Shown: in pieces, positions 1 to 34,942 of the stretch | How the letters are laid out: each line of letters opens with the position of its first letter | Numbering within the stretch: position 1 is the first letter of the stretch | Assembly (NCBI RefSeq): GCF_001886855.1 | Contig: NZ_CP013197.1 | Coordinates: forward strand, 248,001 to 312,000 | DNA: 64,000 nucleotides | Source: Spiroplasma citri | GTDB taxonomy: Bacteria > Bacillota_I > Bacilli_A > Mycoplasmatales > Mycoplasmataceae | Reading direction: 5' to 3' | Translations under genes and position numbers: made by a program | Notes under the pieces: model-generated | Database searches by the model: none | Seen by the model: only the letters and a program-made list of their open reading frames with translations | Told to the model about the DNA's origin: nothing

Positions 1-462
1 ATTTCAATAATATCTTCATCAGTTTTAGCACCATTTTTCTTAATTTCTTCTAAACGATTAGATTTAATTTCTTCTTGTCTTTTTAACATTTGGTCAATTA
101 CAGAACCACCGTCAACAGTACCATCAACTTGATTTAGATTATATTCTTCTGCTATTTTATTTATTCTTTCTTGTTTAGATAAATCATTATATTTTTCATT
201 ATCAATTAATGAACTAATAATTTTTTTATCTTTATCTGTAAAATTTTGTAAATATAATTCATTTTCTAATAAATTACTTTTATTTTTTTAATTCTTGTAA
301 TTGAGCATTAACAGTTTCTCAATCTGTTTTTTCAACTACATCTTCACGATTTTTAATTGATTCACGAATTTGTTTTGCTTGAGCATCTAATAATTCATTA
401 ACTGCTTGTGCTTTTTCATCATCAATATTTAAAATCTCTTTAATTTTTTCTACATTTGCCAT
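1..462 (-). CDS. Phage scaffold-like coiled protein, frameshifted, incomplete at window start
   Basis: The ATG at 462 is preceded by AAGGAG. The first 60 codons (MANVEKIKEILNIDDEKA...) are charged and helical, cross one TGA-Trp, and hit TAA at 280-282 just after an A7 run on the coding strand. Removing one A would continue the frame into more coiled sequence that stays open to position 1 (SNLLENELYLQNFTDKDKK...). Size, charge and a place downstream of terminase and portal fit a phage scaffolding protein, but that is inference without a family match. Either the gene is broken, or it is read by slippage or +1 frameshifting, or the run length is a sequencing error. The major capsid gene would be expected just outside the window. 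Confidence 0.55.
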
Positions 463-625
463 TATTTTGCACTCCTTATTTAAGTGTTGGATTAACACTT
501 TTAACAAATTATAGTTAAGACTCTTTTTATGGAAAAAGATTAAACCATTAACTTTATTTTACACTATTATTTTACCAATACAATACTTTTTATATACAAA
601 TACTAAACAAATAACATAAAAGTGT

Positions 626-766: not shown

Positions 767-793
767 AAAAGAGATTATTAAATCTCTTTTTTT
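765..793. terminator. Bidirectional hairpin terminator
   Basis: AAAAAAGAGATT (765-776) pairs with AATCTC and a T run (781-793). The symmetric A/T runs suit termination both of the plus-strand peptide gene and of the minus-strand gene ending at 792. Confidence 0.7.
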
Positions 794-1037
794 AATTCTT
801 TTTAACAATCATAGTATCAAGCATATTTTTATATTCTTTATCTTGATTTGCCATATATATCATTGTTTCTTTAAGTTTTATTTGAAATTCTTTAAAATGA
901 TTAATGCACAACTGCACAGGTCAATCACCTTGCATTTGTCTTACTAAATCACCATTTTCATCTTTTTTAAATTTTGCTAATACCTTATCTTTACAATCAG
1001 GCATCTCACAATCTAACGATTTTTTAATAACTGCCAT
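792..1037 (-). CDS. Hypothetical 81-aa protein of the phage module
   Basis: An 81-residue protein begins MAVIKKSLDCEMPDCKDKV and reads one TGA as Trp. A Cys pair (CEMPDC, about residues 10-15) and a later Cys in VQLCINHFKEF could bind metal; this is inference from spacing only. The start lies one base beyond the stop of the lipoprotein gene, with AAGGGTG as RBS, so the two are very probably co-transcribed. The coding stop falls inside the terminator at 765-793. No family was recognised. Confidence 0.65.
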
Positions 1038-1038
1038 C

Positions 1039-1545
1039 TTATTCACCCTTAACTTTTACATTACCATCAGTATCAATAACTAAATTGGGCTCTGCTGTAT
1101 CTAAATTTCAACGATAAACTGATTTAAAATAATTACTATTTATTTCTCATCATTTACTAGCCTCATAAGTAAAATCATATCTATTTATTGCTAAACCTTT
1201 TGGGCAAACCAATAAATCATGTTCTATATAATGATCCAGTTTTCTTTTTAATGAAATAGAATTTAAATCTATATCGTTATTAAACTTACTTAAATATCAT
1301 TCTTTATTTTCATTACCACGTCATACTACATAATATCATTTATTATCAACTTTATTAAATGGTTTTTCTTGTGGTGCTATTCATTCTAAATTGTCTTTAA
1401 TGTTTTGATCTTTTGTATTTATTTGGTTTTCTTGTTTTAGTTTTTTTAATTCATCTTCGCTATATTGTGTGTTACAAGCAACTAAACTTGTTGTGCTTGT
1501 ACCAATTAGAGTGATTGCTCCTAAAAGACTTAATATCTTTTTCAT
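1039..1545 (-). CDS. Prolipoprotein in the phage module
   Basis: 168 residues. The N-terminus MKKILSLLGAITLIG...SLVAC is a typical spiroplasma lipoprotein signal peptide with the lipobox Cys at residue 24, so the mature protein should be anchored on the outer face of the membrane. The mature part is Trp-rich (most Trp as TGA), hydrophilic and of unknown fold. It follows the 1005-aa structural gene after 67 bases and abuts the 81-aa gene. A lipoprotein inside a phage late-type operon could act in superinfection exclusion or lysogenic conversion, but nothing in the sequence proves this. Confidence 0.75.
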
Positions 1546-1612
1546 TATAATAATAATCCCTTTCGTTAAATCTTTTTACAATCACAATTATATATATAAT
1601 CAAGTAAAAAAC

Positions 1613-4600
1613 CTAACTTCGTGGAATTAATGTAATACTAACAGGATTATTACTTTTATTTCTAATACCTAAAATATTTGAATTATCAATATCTATTGAT
1701 ATGTTTTTATCATTACCAAAATATTGATAAAGTCTTTTATCTTTAAATTTAAAAAATGAAAAATCAGGAAAAACCACTTTTGTAAATCTAATCTTTAATT
1801 TCATGTCATTAGTATGTCATGCTTGTACATACAATTCTTTAATTTTATTATCATCATTATCAGATAATTTTGTTATTTGTAATAAAAAACTAAAATCACA
1901 ATTTTTAGAAAAAGAATAGCGATTTTGATAATATCCACTAGGTAAGCCAGTAGTTTCACCAGTAAATAATGTTGTCTTTTTATTTTCTTTTATATTAGCA
2001 AGGTCATATATTAAACTACCATTAAAATTAACTTTATCAATTTGTTTATCACCCTTAAATTTTAATTTTCCGTTGGAAAACCAGCCTAAATTATTTTCAC
2101 AAGTAGAATAACCACCAAGAATATTTATATTTCTATTAGGAATAAAATTCTCTATATTTGGTGGGGCACATTTAACTTGTAAATTATTAAGATTATTAAA
2201 TTGAATTGATGAATAAGCATTTAATAATTGTTCTCAAGTAGTAATTGTTGTGTTAATTTGTTTTAAATCAACTTCTAATTCATAATATACATTATCATAC
2301 TTGTTGTTAAATAAATTAATTCAGTCTTTTTGTCAAATAAAAGAAATGCTTGAAGTACATTGTTTTGCTGCTGTTATGTTAGCTTTTAATGGTCTAATTG
2401 TATTAGAATCTAATATATTTACTGTATATGGTTTATATGTAAATGGGTCTGGTGGTAATACTGCTTGGGGGTAAAAGAATGTTGTTTCTTCAAGTAAATC
2501 ATAATCTAATGCACTTGTTTTAATAACACTATTTCATGCTTGTACATTCCCATTTGGTTTAATAAATTTTGCCATTGTTTGTCATTCACCTTGAAAATTT
2601 TGAAATGCAGTAATATTATCATTTAAAGTAAATGGATTTTCTGAATATGTTGTAATTTTAAAATTAGTTTTACCAATAGTTTGTAAATTAATTAAATCAA
2701 TTACATAACTTTCTAATGTTCCATCTGCTGTCGGATTAAAATCTAATTTATTATCTAAATTAGTTAATGGTGTATCTTTATCTAATGCTTGAAAATCTTG
2801 TGATAATATTACAATTTCATCAGTACCACCATTAACATTAATTCTATTTTGCCCTAAATCAATAGTAGAATAAACTTTTGTACCTAAATCTTGACCAGTT
2901 GCAGAATAATAATGTGTTTTAATTTTATCAGTTAATTTAAGCATACAACCAAATGTTAATGAATTACTTCCAATTAAACCACCAACTTGATCTTCTGTTT
3001 CATTACGAAACATATCATAAGGAATATTACCTTTTCCAGCACTATTATCTTTTCATAAACTATTTTGAATAATTTCATAACTTAAATAATCAATAAAAGC
3101 ATTTAATTGGGCTATTTTTGGTATTAATTGCGTATTTTTTTGACTCATTAATTTAACTGGTAAACCTAAATCAAAAAATGAAATTATTTTACCAACAATA
3201 GGTAAATTATTAAGACTAAATTTAGTAAATTCATTAACATCTCAAGGTAATAATGAAATTGATGAATGTGTATAACGATTAGCATTTAATACATCATGAA
3301 ATGATGAAGATTTTAATTGTGAATAATCAAATGATGCAACACCAAAAGGGGCTTTTTTATATTCTGGGTCTTGATAAATAAATTTACGAATTTGTTTCGT
3401 ATCATAAGCACCATTAGGTTTAAATTGTAATCCACTATCTCAAAAAGGTGTTTTATTAGGATTTGTTGCTCTAGTAGCAATTAAATCACTTCCTAATACA
3501 CCTTCAGCATTTTTCTTTGCTAATGGATCTGCTAATGCATTAAAAATATTAGTTCATTCTCCATAAGTAGTTTGATTAGATGGTTTTAAACCTTGTAAAT
3601 TATATAAAACATTAGCAGGATTAGAATTAGTTAATAAAGTATCAGGCATTCCACTTAATTCATCTGAAAATAATAAATCTCGTGGTTGATATACTCTTTT
3701 ATTAATTTGTCCTGATTTAATAGGGCGACCAATAACAGTTAAAGAACTAAATGCAGTTAAACCTAATACTTTTAAATCAATTCATTTAACACCAACATCT
3801 TCAGCTAATACTGGGTCATAATCAACAACTCCATTAATAATTCTTGGAAAAAAATAACCTTCACCAATAGCACCATGTTGTATTTTTTGTCATATTGCCA
3901 TACCTGATTTAGATAAATGGTCATTAACACTACTAAATGTAATTTCTTGAAATAAAAACTTTTTATTATCAAAAGGATCATAGTAATCTGTAATATTAGA
4001 AATATATAATCATTGAATAGATTGATTATATTCATAAGTATTAATAGTTTCTCCACCAATATTTTCATTATTTTTATTTAAAACAACATAAAGGTTTAAT
4101 TCATCATTTTGACCAAATTGTTTATCTGTTGATAATAAAGTATATTGTCTTTGAGTTGAAATACCTTGAAAAATAGGGTCAGGCGTTCCTTGCGATGAAA
4201 AATATGCACCACTTGTACTATTTTGTAAATATGCTTCATACATATCACCACGATTAGTAGGGTAATGCATTGGATTAATAATTTTAGTATAAAAATTATC
4301 AGCATCTTTAAAGTTTTTTTCTTCTGTTCCTTTATTAACTTGTTTTAATTTAAAAGCATTTTTTCATTGAGCAATAATAGTAGCATTACCAGTAATTGCT
4401 AAAGTAAAATCTGAATAATCTTGTGGAATACTATTAATTGGTTTATATCCACTTGTAGTTAATGGAATAACACCATTTGTAATAACAAAAGGAAAGATAA
4501 ATCATTTATCTAATTCTTGGATTTTACGCTTAATAACTTTACTATCAGTAGATGCCATTCGCATTGCAGTATATAATACTTGATTATTAATTTGGATTGC

Positions 4601-4630
4601 TTCTTTTGAATTATTTTTGTTTAAATTCAT
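1613..4630 (-). CDS. Large phage structural-type protein (1005 aa), unrecognised
   Basis: One uninterrupted table-4 frame of 1005 codons opens with MNLNKNNSKEAIQINNQ at 4630, where the preceding AGGTGG is the likely RBS. The start overlaps the last 20 bases of the portal-like gene, so translation is probably coupled. There is no signal peptide or clear transmembrane segment. The first 150 residues look mixed alpha/beta; the last 600 are rich in Asn, Thr, Gly and aromatic residues, as in virion or tail beta-structures. Position after the portal suggests a head-tail, collar or receptor-binding component. I cannot assign a family. Several TGA codons are read as Trp. Confidence 0.7.
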
Positions 4631-5972
4631 CTTTTATACCACCTGTATTTTCATTTTCTTCATTCTCATTTTCTAACCCAAAATTATCATTATATTCCAT
4701 TTGTTCTTTATCAATTTTTTCAACTTCTTTTATAGCAAAAGTCATTGGAATACTATCAACAATATGAATATAATTTGCCCGAGACATTGTACCATTTTCT
4801 AATCTTGTATTATTTGTATCAACTAAACGCATTTGGTCAATAATTCCTGCTGGTTTAAATTTTAATGAGTAGGGGCGTTCAATTTTATCTCAATTATTAT
4901 TTTCAGCAATTCAATATTTATGAAATATTCATCAACAATCAAATAAACGATATAAATAATCTAATAAAAAATCTTGTCATACTGCTTGTGATTCAATATC
5001 TTCTGATTGCATAATTAATGTTTGATTTTGATTAGTATAAGTTCCTTGTTCATCTGCTTGTCAACTTAAACCAATACCACGAAAAACAATTTTTAAAATA
5101 TGGTCAGTATCTAAATTATAATCATTTGAATTATATTGCCCTTGAGTATAATTAACAGTTGATCTACCACCTTTTTCATCATAGTTATTTAATACATTTT
5201 GAATAACAAAATCACTTTCATAATCATTTCAAGATTTTTTATTCTCTTTTACATTATCTATTTCTTCACTTGTTGCTTGAATATAACCTCTTGCTCGTGA
5301 AAATCTTCTTGTTTTCTTTTTAATAAATAAATTATCTTGTAAATCTTCAATTAATCACATAGTAGGGTAAATATCGGGATAAGCATTTAACATTGTACTT
5401 GATGCTTGACCTTGTTGATTAGCACGAATAAAATTAGGAATTTGAATTAATGGAAAACGACCTAATTTATTAATATAAGTTCTTTTTTCAATTCTTAAAC
5501 TTTTATCTATTTTTCCAGTAGTTGCACCTGCTTGAGTATTTTCATCATTAGGATATGAATCAATTTGAATATATTTATCATTAATAACAACATGAAAGAT
5601 ATAACCAGTATCATCTTGATTTGGTAATATTCAAATATCTGCTGCTTGCTCTTCTTCATTAATTTTTGATACAAAATTAGTAAATAATGCTGTTCCTAAC
5701 ATAACATCTAAATCATTATCTTTTGTTTCATATATAAACATAACAGCAACACCTAATAATGATTTAGTTCATGACATTTTAATTAATTTTTCATAAATTT
5801 TTCTTTTATGATATCAATTTTGTCAATGTATTAATGCTTGTTCATTTTCACTATCACAAAGTAAACCACGTCCAATTTCCATTCTTACTTTTCTTTGTGC
5901 AACAATTAAAGGCACATTTATTTTTCAATCACGATTATTAAATGATAATCAATTATTTATATTATTATTCAT
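4611..5972 (-). CDS. Phage portal-like protein
   Basis: 453 residues, starting MNNNINNWLSFNNRDWKIN at 5972 with AGGAG upstream. It lies downstream of the terminase pair, and its size matches phage portal proteins, which form the dodecameric ring through which DNA enters the capsid. The C-terminal 60 residues are very acidic (NDNFGLENENEENENTGG), as is common for portal tails. The assignment rests on gene order, size and composition; no single diagnostic motif is visible. Its end overlaps the 1005-aa gene and its start overlaps the 61-aa gene. Confidence 0.6.
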
Positions 5973-6150
5973 TTTTATTTACTCCTAATCTAGCAAGATG
6001 ACAAATTAATATCTTACTGTCTTTTTCTACTTTATCTACTTTTAAAACTTTATAATCATTTTTATATTTATAAACAAAAATATTATTTTTAGGGATATTC
6101 TTTTTATATTTTCCAATAATTTTATCCATATCAATTAAATATATATACAT
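5965..6150 (-). CDS. Small hypothetical protein between terminase and portal genes
   Basis: 61 residues, MYIYLIDMDKIIGKYKKN and so on: basic, rich in Lys and Tyr, without a signal peptide. The RBS GGGAG lies before the ATG. The gene starts one base after the stop of the large terminase gene and overlaps the portal start by 8 bases, so spacing supports translation as part of the operon. No family was recognised. Confidence 0.55.
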   Translation of the reverse strand: MYIYLIDMDKIIGKYKKNIPKNNIFVYKYKNDYKVLKVDKVEKDSKILICHLARLGVNKNE

Positions 6151-6151
6151 T

Positions 6152-7615
6152 TTAAATATACTCCCTTATTAATCTATTAGTTGATGATTGAACAATCTCT
6201 CTTATATATTCTGATAATGCATAATAATCAGCATCAAATTCATCATCATATAAATCAACTATTTCTTCTTTTCCACCATTAGGTTTTTCTTTTCATTGAA
6301 TCATTGGATATTCCGTATTAGTTTCTTCTAATATTAAATCATGGGTCATTTTATCACTAATCATTGCTGCAATAAATGAATTAACTCTATTAGTAACTGA
6401 CCACATACTTTTATCAACTTCTTCAAATCTTAATAATTTACCATATCTATATTTTATTTTTTCTTTATTAAGAACATCAATAAATGCTCTACCACCAGCA
6501 CCATAATCAACATTAATAGTTAAACCACTTTCAATAAAAATAGTACTATTTTTTAAACTAGATAAATAAAATTGAATAATATCATTTGCTTGTTCAAAGG
6601 TATCTTTATATTCCATTGTTGCATTAGAATGTGTATATTTACCTATTTTATGTACTTTTTTTAAAGTTGAATTATATACTCATAAACTAGCACTTGTTTT
6701 ATGTCCATTAGGACTATCTGCTTGGGCAAAATCAACACCACCTAATATTTTGTCAAAATTTCAAGTTAATTTAGTAAATTTAAGATATCTAGCAAAAACA
6801 GCACCTTGTACTTGCCCAGGTAATCCTCAACTTCATACTCTTGCTCTAACTGGGTCTAATTTTTCTGTTTCTAATTGGTCAAGAATTACATTATCATCTA
6901 AATAAGGATTAAGTCTTCAACTAGAATAATGTATTATTACTGTTTTAGTAAGTTTTTTATTCTTTTCATAATAATTAATTTTAAATTTACCTATTTGATC
7001 AGGATATTTAGATAATAATATTTGTTCATTAAATAACATTATTTCATTACAATATTTAATAATATAACGGTGTAATGATTCAGGATTAGATGAATTAATA
7101 ATAAATTTTCTTTTAGCACCATGAATAGCATATTTTAATTCACTCATATCATCTTTTGTTAATTGGTCTGCTTCTTCTCTTCATTCAATAGCAAATTCAT
7201 ATTTATTTAAATCAGCAAAAGCTTTTAATTTTTCTCTTTTTGTTTGTGAATGTAAACCTTTACAAATAATATAAGTACCATTATCTAATGTAAAAGAATT
7301 CTCAGATAAATTAACTTTATAATTAATATTCATATCATTAAGAGTATTTTGAATATTTTTAAATACTCCATTTCTAATATCTTTATTCATTTTCATAACA
7401 GCAATAATAAATATTGGCTTACCCACCAATAATGATATAGCACAGCATTTGCCAACTACATTATCTTTTATCATAAAAGTTTTAGCACTATAACGACTTC
7501 CTATTTCATTATATTCATCAGCAGGATTATATATTTCTTTTCACGGTGCATTAGGGACATGTTGTTGATAAAATCATCTTGGAATTTCATCTAAATGTAA
7601 AAAATGTTTAAGCAT
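6152..7615 (-). CDS. terL: Phage terminase large subunit
   Basis: 487 residues. The ATPase that packages DNA into procapsids and cuts concatemers. Visible motifs in order: a Walker A variant GSRYSAKT (39-46), a Walker B-like WREEAD (145-150), the coupling motif SSNP (about 175-178), and a C-terminal nuclease domain opening with GVDFAQAD, where Asp 295 is the likely first metal ligand, plus acidic residues near the end (DDEFDADYY). The start at 7615 follows GAGGTGA and overlaps the small terminase gene. The Walker A has Ala where Gly is usual, which terminases tolerate. It appears intact. Confidence 0.88.
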
Positions 7616-7946
7616 CTTTAATCACCTCATTTATTTTAGGTAAATCAACATTATCAAAATTAATAACAATATTAGCATTATTTATATTTGTATCTTTAAC
7701 ATATTTCTCAACATATATTTTCTCCCCCCCGCCATATTTGTCATTTAATAAAGCCAATTCCAATTCTATTTCTAATTGATTTATTGTATCTTTAATAAAA
7801 TAAGCGGTTTTTGTATCAACTTCATCTTGTCAATTATCAAATGGTAGTTTTAAATAGTATAAATATGCTCTTTTATTACTTAATTTGTCCGCTTTTTTTC
7901 GTAAAAACTCCTTAGTTTTACCCGAAATAGTCTTAAAAGTTACCAT
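7608..7946 (-). CDS. terS: Probable phage terminase small subunit
   Basis: 112 residues. The start MVTFKTISGKTKEFLRKKAD has AAGGAG upstream, and the stop overlaps the terL start by 8 bases. The N-terminal half is basic and helical, and the C-terminal half ends in an acidic tail, as in DNA-recognising small terminases. The assignment is mainly positional. The Gly-Gly-Gly at about residues 70-72 is encoded by a G7 run, unusual in this AT-rich DNA and a possible slippage site; the frame here is intact with seven G. Confidence 0.6.
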
Positions 7947-7998
7947 TTTTTACTCCTTTTTGCATATTAAAATTGCTATTATTTAAACAATATGGTTA

Positions 7999-8027
7999 AA
8001 TAAAAGAGTAATAAACAAACCTATCAA
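7999..8027 (-). promoter_or_regulatory. Possible promoter of the phage operon
   Basis: On the minus strand TTGATA (8027-8022) is followed after about 17 bases by an AT-rich TTTATT-like -10. It lies some 55 bases upstream of the terS start. The match is weak in such AT-rich DNA. The remainder of 7947-8250 carries only the terminator and repeat listed separately. Confidence 0.25.
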
Positions 8028-8094
8028 GAACTAAAAACGTATCACAATGTATTAAAGAACTTAATATTATTTTTATTATGTTTATTTTACAATT

Positions 8095-8123
8095 AAAAAA
8101 GGACTTTTTCAAGTCTTTTTTTT
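8095..8123. terminator. Hairpin terminator between phage module and IS30 element
   Basis: GACTT (8102-8106) pairs with AAGTC (8111-8115), extended by an A run before and a T run after. It can act in either direction. Confidence 0.55.
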
Positions 8124-8136
8124 GTAAAACAAGTAT

Positions 8137-8158
8137 AGAGACAGATATTCGCAACTTG
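8137..8158 (+). repeat. Left copy of imperfect direct repeat flanking the transposase
   Basis: Core AGAGACAGATATTCGC followed by AACTTG. The right copy at 9372-9392 lacks one A and differs at two other bases. Such G/C-containing identity is unlikely by chance in AT-rich DNA. Confidence 0.55.
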
Positions 8159-8250
8159 TTATAAATTAATTGTATAACTTTAAAAATAATTGTCAATAGT
8201 TTTTTAAAAATAGTGTATAAATAATTTTAAAAAGATTGGAGACAGAATAT

Positions 8251-9234
8251 ATGAAAGATTATACACATCTAAAATATGATGAACGAAATTTATTTAAGGA
8301 TTTATTTTTATCTGATAGTTGTAAAAAGAAAAATGGTACACTTAATTTATCTGAAATTGCAAGACAAACAAATCGCAGTGTGAATACTGTTAAAAGAGAA
8401 ATTAAAAGATTTAAAAATATAGAAGATTATACAGCAATAGAAGCACAAAAAGATTATTATAAAAAGCGTAAAAAATGTATTAAAAAACTACCTACATTTA
8501 CAAAAGAACAATTAAATTTTATTCATCTGAGATTTAATGTTTATCATGATTCACCAGCAGAAATTATTCAACGATTTTTAATAAAGTTTGGTATCAAATT
8601 TCCCGCTTGTGTTAAAACATTTTATAAATGAATTTTTTTAGGTCTTTTGGGTTTGTTAAAGAAAAATTTATTAAATGGTGGTAGAAAAAATAGAACAAAG
8701 AAAAGACCTGATAATCGTGGCAAATTAGATGAAAGATTTAAATCAATATGAGATATTGAAAATAAAGAATCTAATGTTGGATGACTTGAAATGGATACAG
8801 TGGTTGGTAAAGACCATAAATTTGCTATTTTAGTTTTAGTAGAACAATTAAGTAAAAAATATTTTGCAATAAAATTAGAAAATCATACTGCTAATGAAGT
8901 TTTAGAAAAACTTGAAGAATTAGTTAGAATTAATGGGTTAGTTGGAAAAATTAAAGGAATAATAACAGATCGCGGAAAAGAATTTAGTAAATTTGAAGAG
9001 ATGGAAAAGATTACTGGTTCTAATGTTTATTATTGTGACCCTGGTTCACCAAAACAAAAACCCTTAATTGAAAGAATTAACCGTGAATTTAGAAAACGCT
9101 TTCCTAAGGACACTGATTTTAATAATGTTAATCAGAAAAGAATAGATTTAGTAGTTAATGTTATAAATGATAAACTCCGACCGTGTTTAAATTGAATAAG
9201 TGCAAAAGAAATGTTTTTACAAAATATTAAGTAA
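8251..9234 (+). CDS. IS30-family transposase
   Basis: 327 residues. The N-terminal helix-turn-helix (about 35-55, LSEIARQTNRSVNTVKREIK) binds element ends, and the DDE catalytic core shows Asp182 in EMDTVVG, Asp240 in IITDRGKEF and Glu274 in KPLIERINREF, followed by the IS30-typical FPKDTDF. Three TGA codons read as Trp. The ATG at 8251 is preferred over an in-frame TTG at 8236 because GGAGA sits 8 bases upstream. The gene looks intact. It resembles the transposase carried by SpV1-type spiroplasma phages (established family knowledge, not verified here). Confidence 0.93.
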
Positions 9235-9293
9235 ATTTATTAATTAAAATTTAATAAATACTTTTTTAGTGTGCTTAAATATGGTTAAATTAA

Positions 9294-9962
9294 TTTATAT
9301 TTATAAAATATTTTATTTTTTTTAAAAAAAGAGTTGCATTTGTTAAAAATGATGTTATCATCAAATTAACAAGAGACAGATTTTGCTACTTGAATTTACA
9401 TAATACAAAATTAAGAAATTCTGGCTTTGTGAAAAATCGGTTTTTTATCTTATATATTGTCTTTGCCGCTTTGTTAACATTTTTATTTTTTACACTTGGT
9501 ACAATTATCGGTGCGGTTACTGGTGAAAAATTTACTGGCAGTTGGCATAACATAGCAATTTATTGAATTAGTACAACAGTGTAACATTGGGTTTGTCCAG
9601 TTATTTTTATTATCTATTTTTGCATATTGGTAGAAAAAGAATTTATAAATTATAAAGATTTTTGTTTACAAAAATTATATAAGTTTTATCTTCATCCAAT
9701 TTTTTACACCATTTTTATTGCTGTCCGCCAAGGCGTTTTATTATTAACTCCAGTTGATGAAAAATTATGAAATTATAGTGTTCCAACGAATAATTATTAT
9801 GTGCCATATTTTTTTCAAGATTTTCGCCACTTAGAATATTATATTTTATATTTACTTGTGTTAAGTATCATTATTGCTTTATTAATAACATTTGTTGTTA
9901 ATTTAAATAATTTATTAGTTAACCGTCAAAAAATTAAAGAAATGAAAGAAAAGATAAATTAA
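9294..9962 (+). pseudogene. Decayed multi-pass membrane protein, possibly Pr6Pr-like
   Basis: The frame is open from 9294 with no proper start codon, reads KLTRDRFCYLNLHNTKL and several hydrophobic spans (FFILYIVFAALLTFLFFTLG; YYILYLLVLSIIIALLITF), but is cut by TAA at 9582-9584 between STTV and HWVCP. Sequence after the stop remains clearly coding to TAA at 9960, with one TGA-Trp. It looks like the membrane proteins of the Pr6Pr type common in spiroplasmas; that family call is tentative. Loss of the 5' end next to the IS30 element suggests the insertion contributed. Confidence 0.6.
9372..9392 (+). repeat. Right copy of imperfect direct repeat flanking the transposase
   Basis: AGAGACAGATTTTGCTACTT followed by G, about 1.2 kb from the left copy, in the same orientation. 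It lies inside the 5' part of the decayed membrane-protein frame. Confidence 0.55.
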
Positions 9963-34771: not shown

Positions 34772-34848
<77 letters not shown>

Positions 34849-34866
34849 TTTTTTTATAAGAATTTT

Positions 34867-34942
34867 GGGCCCGTAGCTCAGCTGGGAGAGCACCTGCCTT
34901 GCACGCAGGGGGTCGACGGTTCGATCCCGTTCGGGTCCACCA
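34867..34942 (+). tRNA. tRNA-Ala (TGC)
   Basis: 76 bases with encoded CCA. The acceptor GGGCCCG pairs with CGGGTCC (one G-U), the anticodon stem CCTGC/GCAGG holds the loop CTTGCAC with anticodon TGC, and the T arm is GGTTCGATCCC. It lies 18 bases after tRNA-Ile, so the two are co-transcribed. Confidence 0.96.

What the first reader, a model, noticed from the sequence alone, without database searches (positions are those of the whole stretch)
1613..7946. Compact terminase-portal module followed by an orphan 1005-aa structural-type protein
Gene order terS-terL-small ORF-portal is recognisable with tight overlaps, but the next gene, where a head-morphogenesis protein is normal, encodes one unbroken 1005-residue protein that matches no family I know. 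Its last 600 residues look beta-rich, as in receptor-binding or tail proteins. In a wall-less host, the adsorption apparatus could differ from known phages. The open frames suggest a functional phage or a recently active prophage.
Basis: partly seen in the sequence, partly recalled or inferred. Interest (0 to 1): 0.62.

Follow-up and report, generated by a model that had tools for sequence, protein, structure and literature searches.

The report
Spiroplasma prophage tail protein, hypervariable tip
The 'orphan' 1005-residue protein belongs to a family found throughout a known type of Spiroplasma virus; it is probably the part that grips the host cell, and its fast-changing tip sits beside an equally fast-changing viral surface lipoprotein that may keep rival viruses out.

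Summary
Under the Spiroplasma code (TGA=Trp), TerS-TerL-61 aa-portal-1005 aa are intact and overlapping. The 1005-aa protein matches, over 99% of its length (37% identity, E 3e-149), a hypothetical protein at the same position in Spiroplasma phage MaM-2019a. Relatives occur in 9 of 14 Spiroplasma genomes and were not detected outside the genus. The host is Spiroplasma citri. This copy is a defective prophage: the scaffold-like gene is frameshifted; connector, RecT and RuvC genes are missing.

New here: residues 1-732 are a conserved body (99% identical to S. phoeniceum) and 733-1005 a hypervariable tip (58%), with a jump in synonymous divergence too, so tips are swapped by recombination. No reverse transcriptase was found. 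Tip and the next gene, a hypervariable lipoprotein, form one island of about 1 kb in otherwise 92-97% identical DNA. I infer a tail/adsorption protein with a receptor-binding tip; AlphaFold failed, so the fold is unknown.

In other Spiroplasma viruses, relatives of this lipoprotein duplicate, at 95-100% DNA identity, a hypervariable domain of the same virus's large protein, suggesting receptor-specific superinfection exclusion: the most novel lead.

The parts
1613..4630 (-). 1005-aa large protein encoded directly after the portal; conserved in MaM-2019a-type Spiroplasma phages; inferred tail/adsorption protein
2435..4630 (-). conserved body, residues 1-732 (98.3% nt identity to S. phoeniceum copy, dN/dS 0.11); the most hydrophobic stretch is residues 476-496
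1613..2434 (-). hypervariable C-terminal tip, residues 733-1005 (75.8% nt, dS 0.35, dN 0.28 against the same S. phoeniceum copy); inferred receptor-binding tip
1039..1545 (-). lipoprotein of 168 aa with signal peptide and lipobox (LVAC), hypervariable middle; inferred superinfection-exclusion partner
1354..2287 (.). hypervariable island (78% nt to S. phoeniceum) covering the tip and part of the lipoprotein gene, flanked by 97.2% (2373-9418) and 92-95% (below 1129) identity
4611..5972 (-). portal, 453 aa (30% to MaM-2019a portal)
5965..6150 (-). 61-aa protein conserved between TerL and portal (98% in two other Spiroplasma genomes; weak phrog_20350)
6152..7630 (-). terminase large subunit, 492 aa
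7608..7946 (-). putative terminase small subunit, 112 aa (by position; homologues in related prophages)
8236..9234 (+). IS30-family transposase carried at the phage end, also next to TerS in relatives; inferred role in integration; homology to the S. phoeniceum element ends at about 9418
792..1046 (-). 84-aa cysteine-containing protein conserved in the same place (79-90%)
1..507 (-). scaffold-like coiled-coil gene, interrupted by a frameshift near 286/287; intact copies exist in other prophages; the capsid gene follows outside the window

Best explanation
This is the late-gene half of a defective, chromosomally integrated dsDNA phage of the MaM-2019a type in Spiroplasma citri. The 1005-aa protein is most likely the tail/adsorption protein. 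Its conserved body of about 730 residues would join the portal/neck and act on the membrane of the wall-less cell, and its C-terminal tip of about 270 residues would bind the host receptor. Tip variants are exchanged by homologous recombination between co-resident prophages, plausibly helped by the phage RecT. The adjacent hypervariable lipoprotein is most likely displayed on the cell surface and blocks adsorption of competing viruses. Shown: family, gene position, intact frame, body/tip split, recombination pattern, the tip-lipoprotein island, defects of this copy. Inferred: tail location, receptor binding, membrane action, exclusion.
For: Full-length homologue at the same position in MaM-2019a. 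Same order in some 20 prophages. Sudden body/tip divergence in several independent pairs: 98.3/75.8, 99.4/82.9, 99.2/76.0% nt; the reverse case, body 95.4 / tip 99.6%, shows swapping. dN/dS rises from 0.1-0.3 to 0.5-0.9 in the tip for these divergent pairs. No reverse transcriptase in 14 genomes. Tip and lipoprotein form one variable island. In another S. citri dsDNA phage the large protein in a similar place (D729, downstream of a 320-aa ORF I take for a portal by eye) carries a domain duplicated in its neighbouring lipoprotein. The catalogue of MaM-2019a genes leaves no other protein of comparable size for a tail.
Against: No detectable homology to any tail or receptor-binding family or to phi29 gp9/gp12 or mycoplasma phage P1 proteins. 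No usable structure model. No virion proteomics was available to me. Lipoprotein and tip do not co-vary strictly: MaM-2019a NSRO-P2 and MSRO-P1 share 94% of the lipoprotein but 56% of the tip, and the tip-lipoprotein correlation within one body clade is weak (rho 0.12). The phage's lipoprotein is not duplicated inside the 1005-aa protein.
Confidence: 0.72

Rival explanations
1. The large protein is an internal or ejection/morphogenesis protein, and the C-terminal variation is neutral decay or mosaicism in dead prophages.
For: Many prophage copies are fragmentary; no similarity to receptor-binding families.
Against: Variation is confined to the tip while the body stays under strong purifying selection in the same genes (dN/dS 0.11-0.32); tips keep an open frame and a conserved framework between variable blocks; tips are exchanged as intact modules.
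Confidence: 0.15
2. The tip is diversified by a dedicated system (diversity-generating retroelement, invertase, or silent cassettes).
For: Blocks of extreme variability in a conserved framework; a duplicated tip plus lipoprotein cassette in one prophage (L062); C-terminal-only fragments in genomes.
Against: No reverse transcriptase in 14 genomes; the duplicated cassette carries the same tip, so it is a tandem duplication; synonymous divergence rises too, as expected for replacement by recombination. Invertases were not searched for.
Confidence: 0.08
3. The lipoprotein is not an exclusion factor but a cargo or host-interaction gene shared among Spiroplasma mobile elements.
For: 44 family matches in the S. 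citri genome, also in plasmid records; no strict co-variation with the tip.
Against: In nearly all mapped relatives it lies next to the 3' end of the adsorption-type gene, in either orientation; in plectroviruses and two other phage types it copies a domain of the virus's own large protein.
Confidence: 0.35

Closest known systems
Spiroplasma phage MaM-2019a (OL689226, OL689227, OL689230; about 19 kb contigs from phage-like particles of S. poulsonii, Ramirez et al., cited in PMC12453411)
   Same: Same gene order TerS-TerL-small ORF-portal-large protein; homologous large protein (37%), TerL (46%), portal (30%), capsid (25%), lipoprotein (50-59%); transposase next to TerS.
   Different: A separate lineage, shared with S. 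phoeniceum and two other Spiroplasma genomes; lipoprotein gene in the opposite orientation; an N-terminal segment of about 65 residues of the large protein is absent; this copy is defective.
Plectroviruses SpV1-R8A2B, SpV1-C74, SkV1 (Vespertiliovirus)
   Same: Encode a distantly related hypervariable lipoprotein next to the large ORF1 protein; one lies next to this prophage.
   Different: Small circular single-strand DNA viruses with unrelated structural genes; there the lipoprotein duplicates an ORF1 domain, which is not the case in the window's phage.
Bacillus phage phi29 tail protein gp9
   Same: Functional analogy only: about 19 kb phage, large tail protein with an internal hydrophobic stretch (phi29 about 431-475; here 476-496).
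   Different: No sequence similarity by profile comparison; phi29 gene order differs.
T5 Llp superinfection-exclusion lipoprotein (PMC9586334)
   Same: Phage-encoded lipoprotein; the proposed function is the same.
   Different: Llp acts from the periplasm on FhuA; no homology was tested; a spiroplasma has a single membrane.

Membership tests
MaM-2019a-type Spiroplasma dsDNA phage | gene order TerS-TerL-small ORF-portal-large protein | tested here: met
MaM-2019a-type Spiroplasma dsDNA phage | homologous full-length large protein | tested here: met
   37% over 99%, E 3e-149; 20-sequence alignment
MaM-2019a-type Spiroplasma dsDNA phage | homologous TerL, portal and major capsid | tested here: met
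   46%, 30%, 25%; the capsid lies outside the window
MaM-2019a-type Spiroplasma dsDNA phage | connector, RecT and RuvC genes at the locus | tested here: not met
   absent in L011/L012 but present in related prophages; read as loss in a defective copy, not as exclusion from the family
MaM-2019a-type Spiroplasma dsDNA phage | packaged in particles | not testable with these tools
   needs induction, microscopy, virion proteomics
phi29-like phages (Salasmaviridae) | similarity of the large protein to gp9 or gp12 | tested here: not met
   hhalign probability 0.1-0.2
phi29-like phages (Salasmaviridae) | gp16-type packaging ATPase | tested here: not met
   TerL matches Terminase_3, PF04466
Diversity-generating retroelement target | reverse transcriptase in the genome | tested here: not met
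   PF00078 in 0 of 14 genomes, controls positive
Known tail fibre/receptor-binding families (Pfam, PHROGs, PDB) | profile match of the large protein | tested here: not met
Superinfection-exclusion lipoproteins (works like) | signal peptide with lipobox | tested here: met
   by inspection of the alignment: MKK start and a lipobox ending in AC are conserved in all rows; no signal-peptide predictor was run
Superinfection-exclusion lipoproteins (works like) | blocks adsorption of the same or related virus | not testable with these tools
   needs an adsorption assay

The most novel reading that the evidence does not exclude
Unrelated Spiroplasma viruses (filamentous plectroviruses and at least two dsDNA phage types) each carry their hypervariable receptor-binding domain twice, once in the large virion protein and once in an adjacent, mostly unannotated reverse-strand surface lipoprotein. 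The two copies are kept nearly identical within a virus while differing greatly between viruses. The lipoprotein would then be a self-matched superinfection-exclusion factor; in the window's phage family the same lipoprotein stands alone beside a hypervariable tail tip and may exclude competitors.
Probability: 0.4. Interest if true: 0.72.

Novelty: new member of a known kind. Interest (0 to 1): 0.48.

Why it matters
It removes the orphan status of the protein and points to where host specificity of Spiroplasma tailed phages is probably decided: a swappable tip of about 270 residues. It also yields a testable, genus-wide pattern: viruses of a wall-less bacterium pairing a hypervariable adhesion domain with a matching surface lipoprotein. 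If that is superinfection exclusion, it would show how dozens of viruses coexist in genomes known for massive viral invasion.

Tried and rejected
AlphaFold2 of the full protein (pLDDT 26.7) and of the tip (42.3): the rules allowed only 2-3 near-identical sequences in the alignment, so the models are unusable and I ran no fold search on them. Profile search against PDB: only chance matches to ribonuclease. Pfam and PHROGs scans of 20 homologues: nothing significant. Viral-contig scans, three: no relative. Diversity-generating retroelement: no reverse transcriptase. Silent-cassette reading of L062: same tip, so a duplication. Lipoprotein domain inside the 1005-aa protein: none by profile or DNA. 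Strict tip-lipoprotein co-variation: not found. phi29 gp9/gp12 and mycoplasma phage P1 homology: none. Repeats at the prophage ends: only one 22-bp match, taken as chance.

Full report
1. Observation. Under NCBI table 4 the five genes are present at the stated coordinates with short overlaps; under table 11 they break up. TerL is confirmed by PF04466 and phrog_3717. The portal is inferred from 30% identity to the MaM-2019a portal, itself annotated by HHpred as SPP1-like. TerS rests on position. The 1005-aa frame is a real gene: full-length copies exist in other species and its first 732 codons are under purifying selection (dN/dS 0.11 against S. phoeniceum).

2. Not an orphan. tblastn finds it in Spiroplasma phage MaM-2019a (37% over 99%, E 3e-149), where the gene also lies directly after the portal. 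MaM-2019a contigs of about 19 kb were assembled from phage-like particles of S. poulsonii (Ramirez et al., as described in PMC12453411). Copies occur in 9 of 14 Spiroplasma genomes, often many per genome. None were found in 46 genomes of other genera of the family, and a class-wide profile search of 296 genomes found only Spiroplasma. It has no Pfam, PHROG or PDB match. Three named loci lie in S. phoeniceum P40. The window's own genome is S. citri: a 15-kb contig of the assembly is 95.5-98.8% identical to S. citri plasmid records.

3. Anatomy of the prophage. Left of the window (locus L011, window coordinate = locus minus 19000) follow the major capsid gene (-1366 to -38), a 114-aa gene and an IS30 copy; further left a plectrovirus; and at -11646 to -11410 a homologue of early gene e79. 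In relatives and in the circular S. citri record pSciBLH13-2 the order is TerS, transposase, e79, early genes. The locus therefore looks like a linearised phage genome whose ends are e79 on the left and IS30 on the right; homology to the S. phoeniceum element ends at about 9418. RecT, RuvC and connector genes are missing and a plectrovirus occupies that place. The scaffold-like gene is split by a frameshift near 286/287. This copy is defective; intact-looking relatives exist elsewhere. pSciBLH13-2 is itself a decayed phage of this kind.

4. Body and tip. In a 20-sequence alignment identity collapses after the motif PPDPFTY, which ends at residue 732. Window against S. phoeniceum: body 98.9% aa, tip 58.5%; nucleotides 98.3 against 75.8%; dS 0.06 against 0.35; dN 0.007 against 0.279. 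Independent pairs behave alike, including the two MaM-2019a contigs (99.2 against 76.0% nt). One pair shows the reverse (body 95.4, tip 99.6%). A jump in dS means replacement by recombination rather than only positive selection in place. dN/dS of 0.5-0.9 in the divergent tips means relaxed or diversifying selection. Reverse transcriptases are absent, with controls positive. RecT in these phages makes relaxed homologous recombination between prophages a natural mechanism (inference).

5. Lipoprotein. The next gene, 1039-1545, encodes a 168-aa lipoprotein with signal peptide, lipobox, conserved ends and a hypervariable middle. In nearly all related prophages a member of this family lies at the 3' end of the large gene, whichever way it points. 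Compared with S. phoeniceum, DNA identity is 97.2% over window 2373-9418, 78% over 1354-2287, then 92-95%: tip and lipoprotein form one island. They do not co-vary strictly.

6. What it suggests by comparison. Next to the prophage, the plectrovirus ORF1 (729 aa) and its reverse-strand lipoprotein share 294 nt at 99.7% in inverted orientation. Over 24 plectrovirus copies, 22 have such a repeat (94.6-100%). Within-virus domain identity is at least 90% in 12 of 14 scored pairs; R8A2B is a true exception (33%), and SkV1's 77% comes from how the domain was trimmed, since its DNA repeat is 97.6%. Between viruses the median is 32%, while the rest of ORF1 has a median of 92%. The repeat is annotated in the C74 and SkV1 records, the lipoprotein gene is not. 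In S. citri, 12 of 14 further loci show the same pairing between a lipoprotein of the window's type (52-60% identical) and a large protein, mostly of the D547 or D729 type. D729 lies after a 320-aa ORF that I take for a portal by eye, in an otherwise complete-looking dsDNA phage. Mature lipoproteins of plectroviruses and of the window's family are homologous by profile (hhalign probability 97%). I infer that this lipoprotein family displays adhesion-type domains at the cell surface, and that receptor competition (superinfection exclusion) is the most economical explanation; T5 Llp (PMC9586334) is a functional precedent, not a homologue. I did not find this pairing described in the open papers searched, which is not proof that it is new.

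7. Limits. AlphaFold failed. No virion data. The tail role is inferred from position, size and variability. The hydrophobic stretch at 476-496 recalls the phi29 gp9 membrane loop but profile comparison shows no homology.

8. Verdict. A new lineage of a known phage kind, here as a defective prophage. The large protein is a conserved, probably receptor-binding tail protein. The most interesting thread is the hypervariable lipoprotein family beside it.

Noticed in passing
L011:12797-15471 (G000:C1, window -6203 to -3529, just left of the window): Plectrovirus ORF1 and a reverse-strand lipoprotein share a 294-nt inverted duplication at 99.7%; 22 of 24 plectrovirus copies show such a repeat, hypervariable between viruses. 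The lipoprotein gene is unannotated in the SpV1-C74 and SkV1 records.
   Followed up: yes
L104-L117 and L119-L120 (S. citri chromosome): Two further phage-type large proteins (D547 and D729) carry an internal domain duplicated at 95-100% in an adjacent inverted lipoprotein; their viruses were only partly mapped.
   Followed up: partly
L141 (NZ_CP047430.1, S. citri pSciBLH13-2, 22313 bp): Recorded as a plasmid, it is a circular, decayed genome of this phage type, with TerS, IS30, e79 and early genes in phage order.
   Followed up: partly
L100 (SpV1-R8A2B): Exception to the pairing: its ORF1 domain and lipoprotein domain differ (33%), and its lipoprotein matches that of another S. citri plectrovirus copy, L082.
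   Followed up: no
L062:10636-13294: Tandem duplication of the tip segment with its lipoprotein genes in one prophage.
   Followed up: partly
window 34772-34942: tRNA-Ile and tRNA-Ala pair, the only tRNAs in the window.
   Followed up: no
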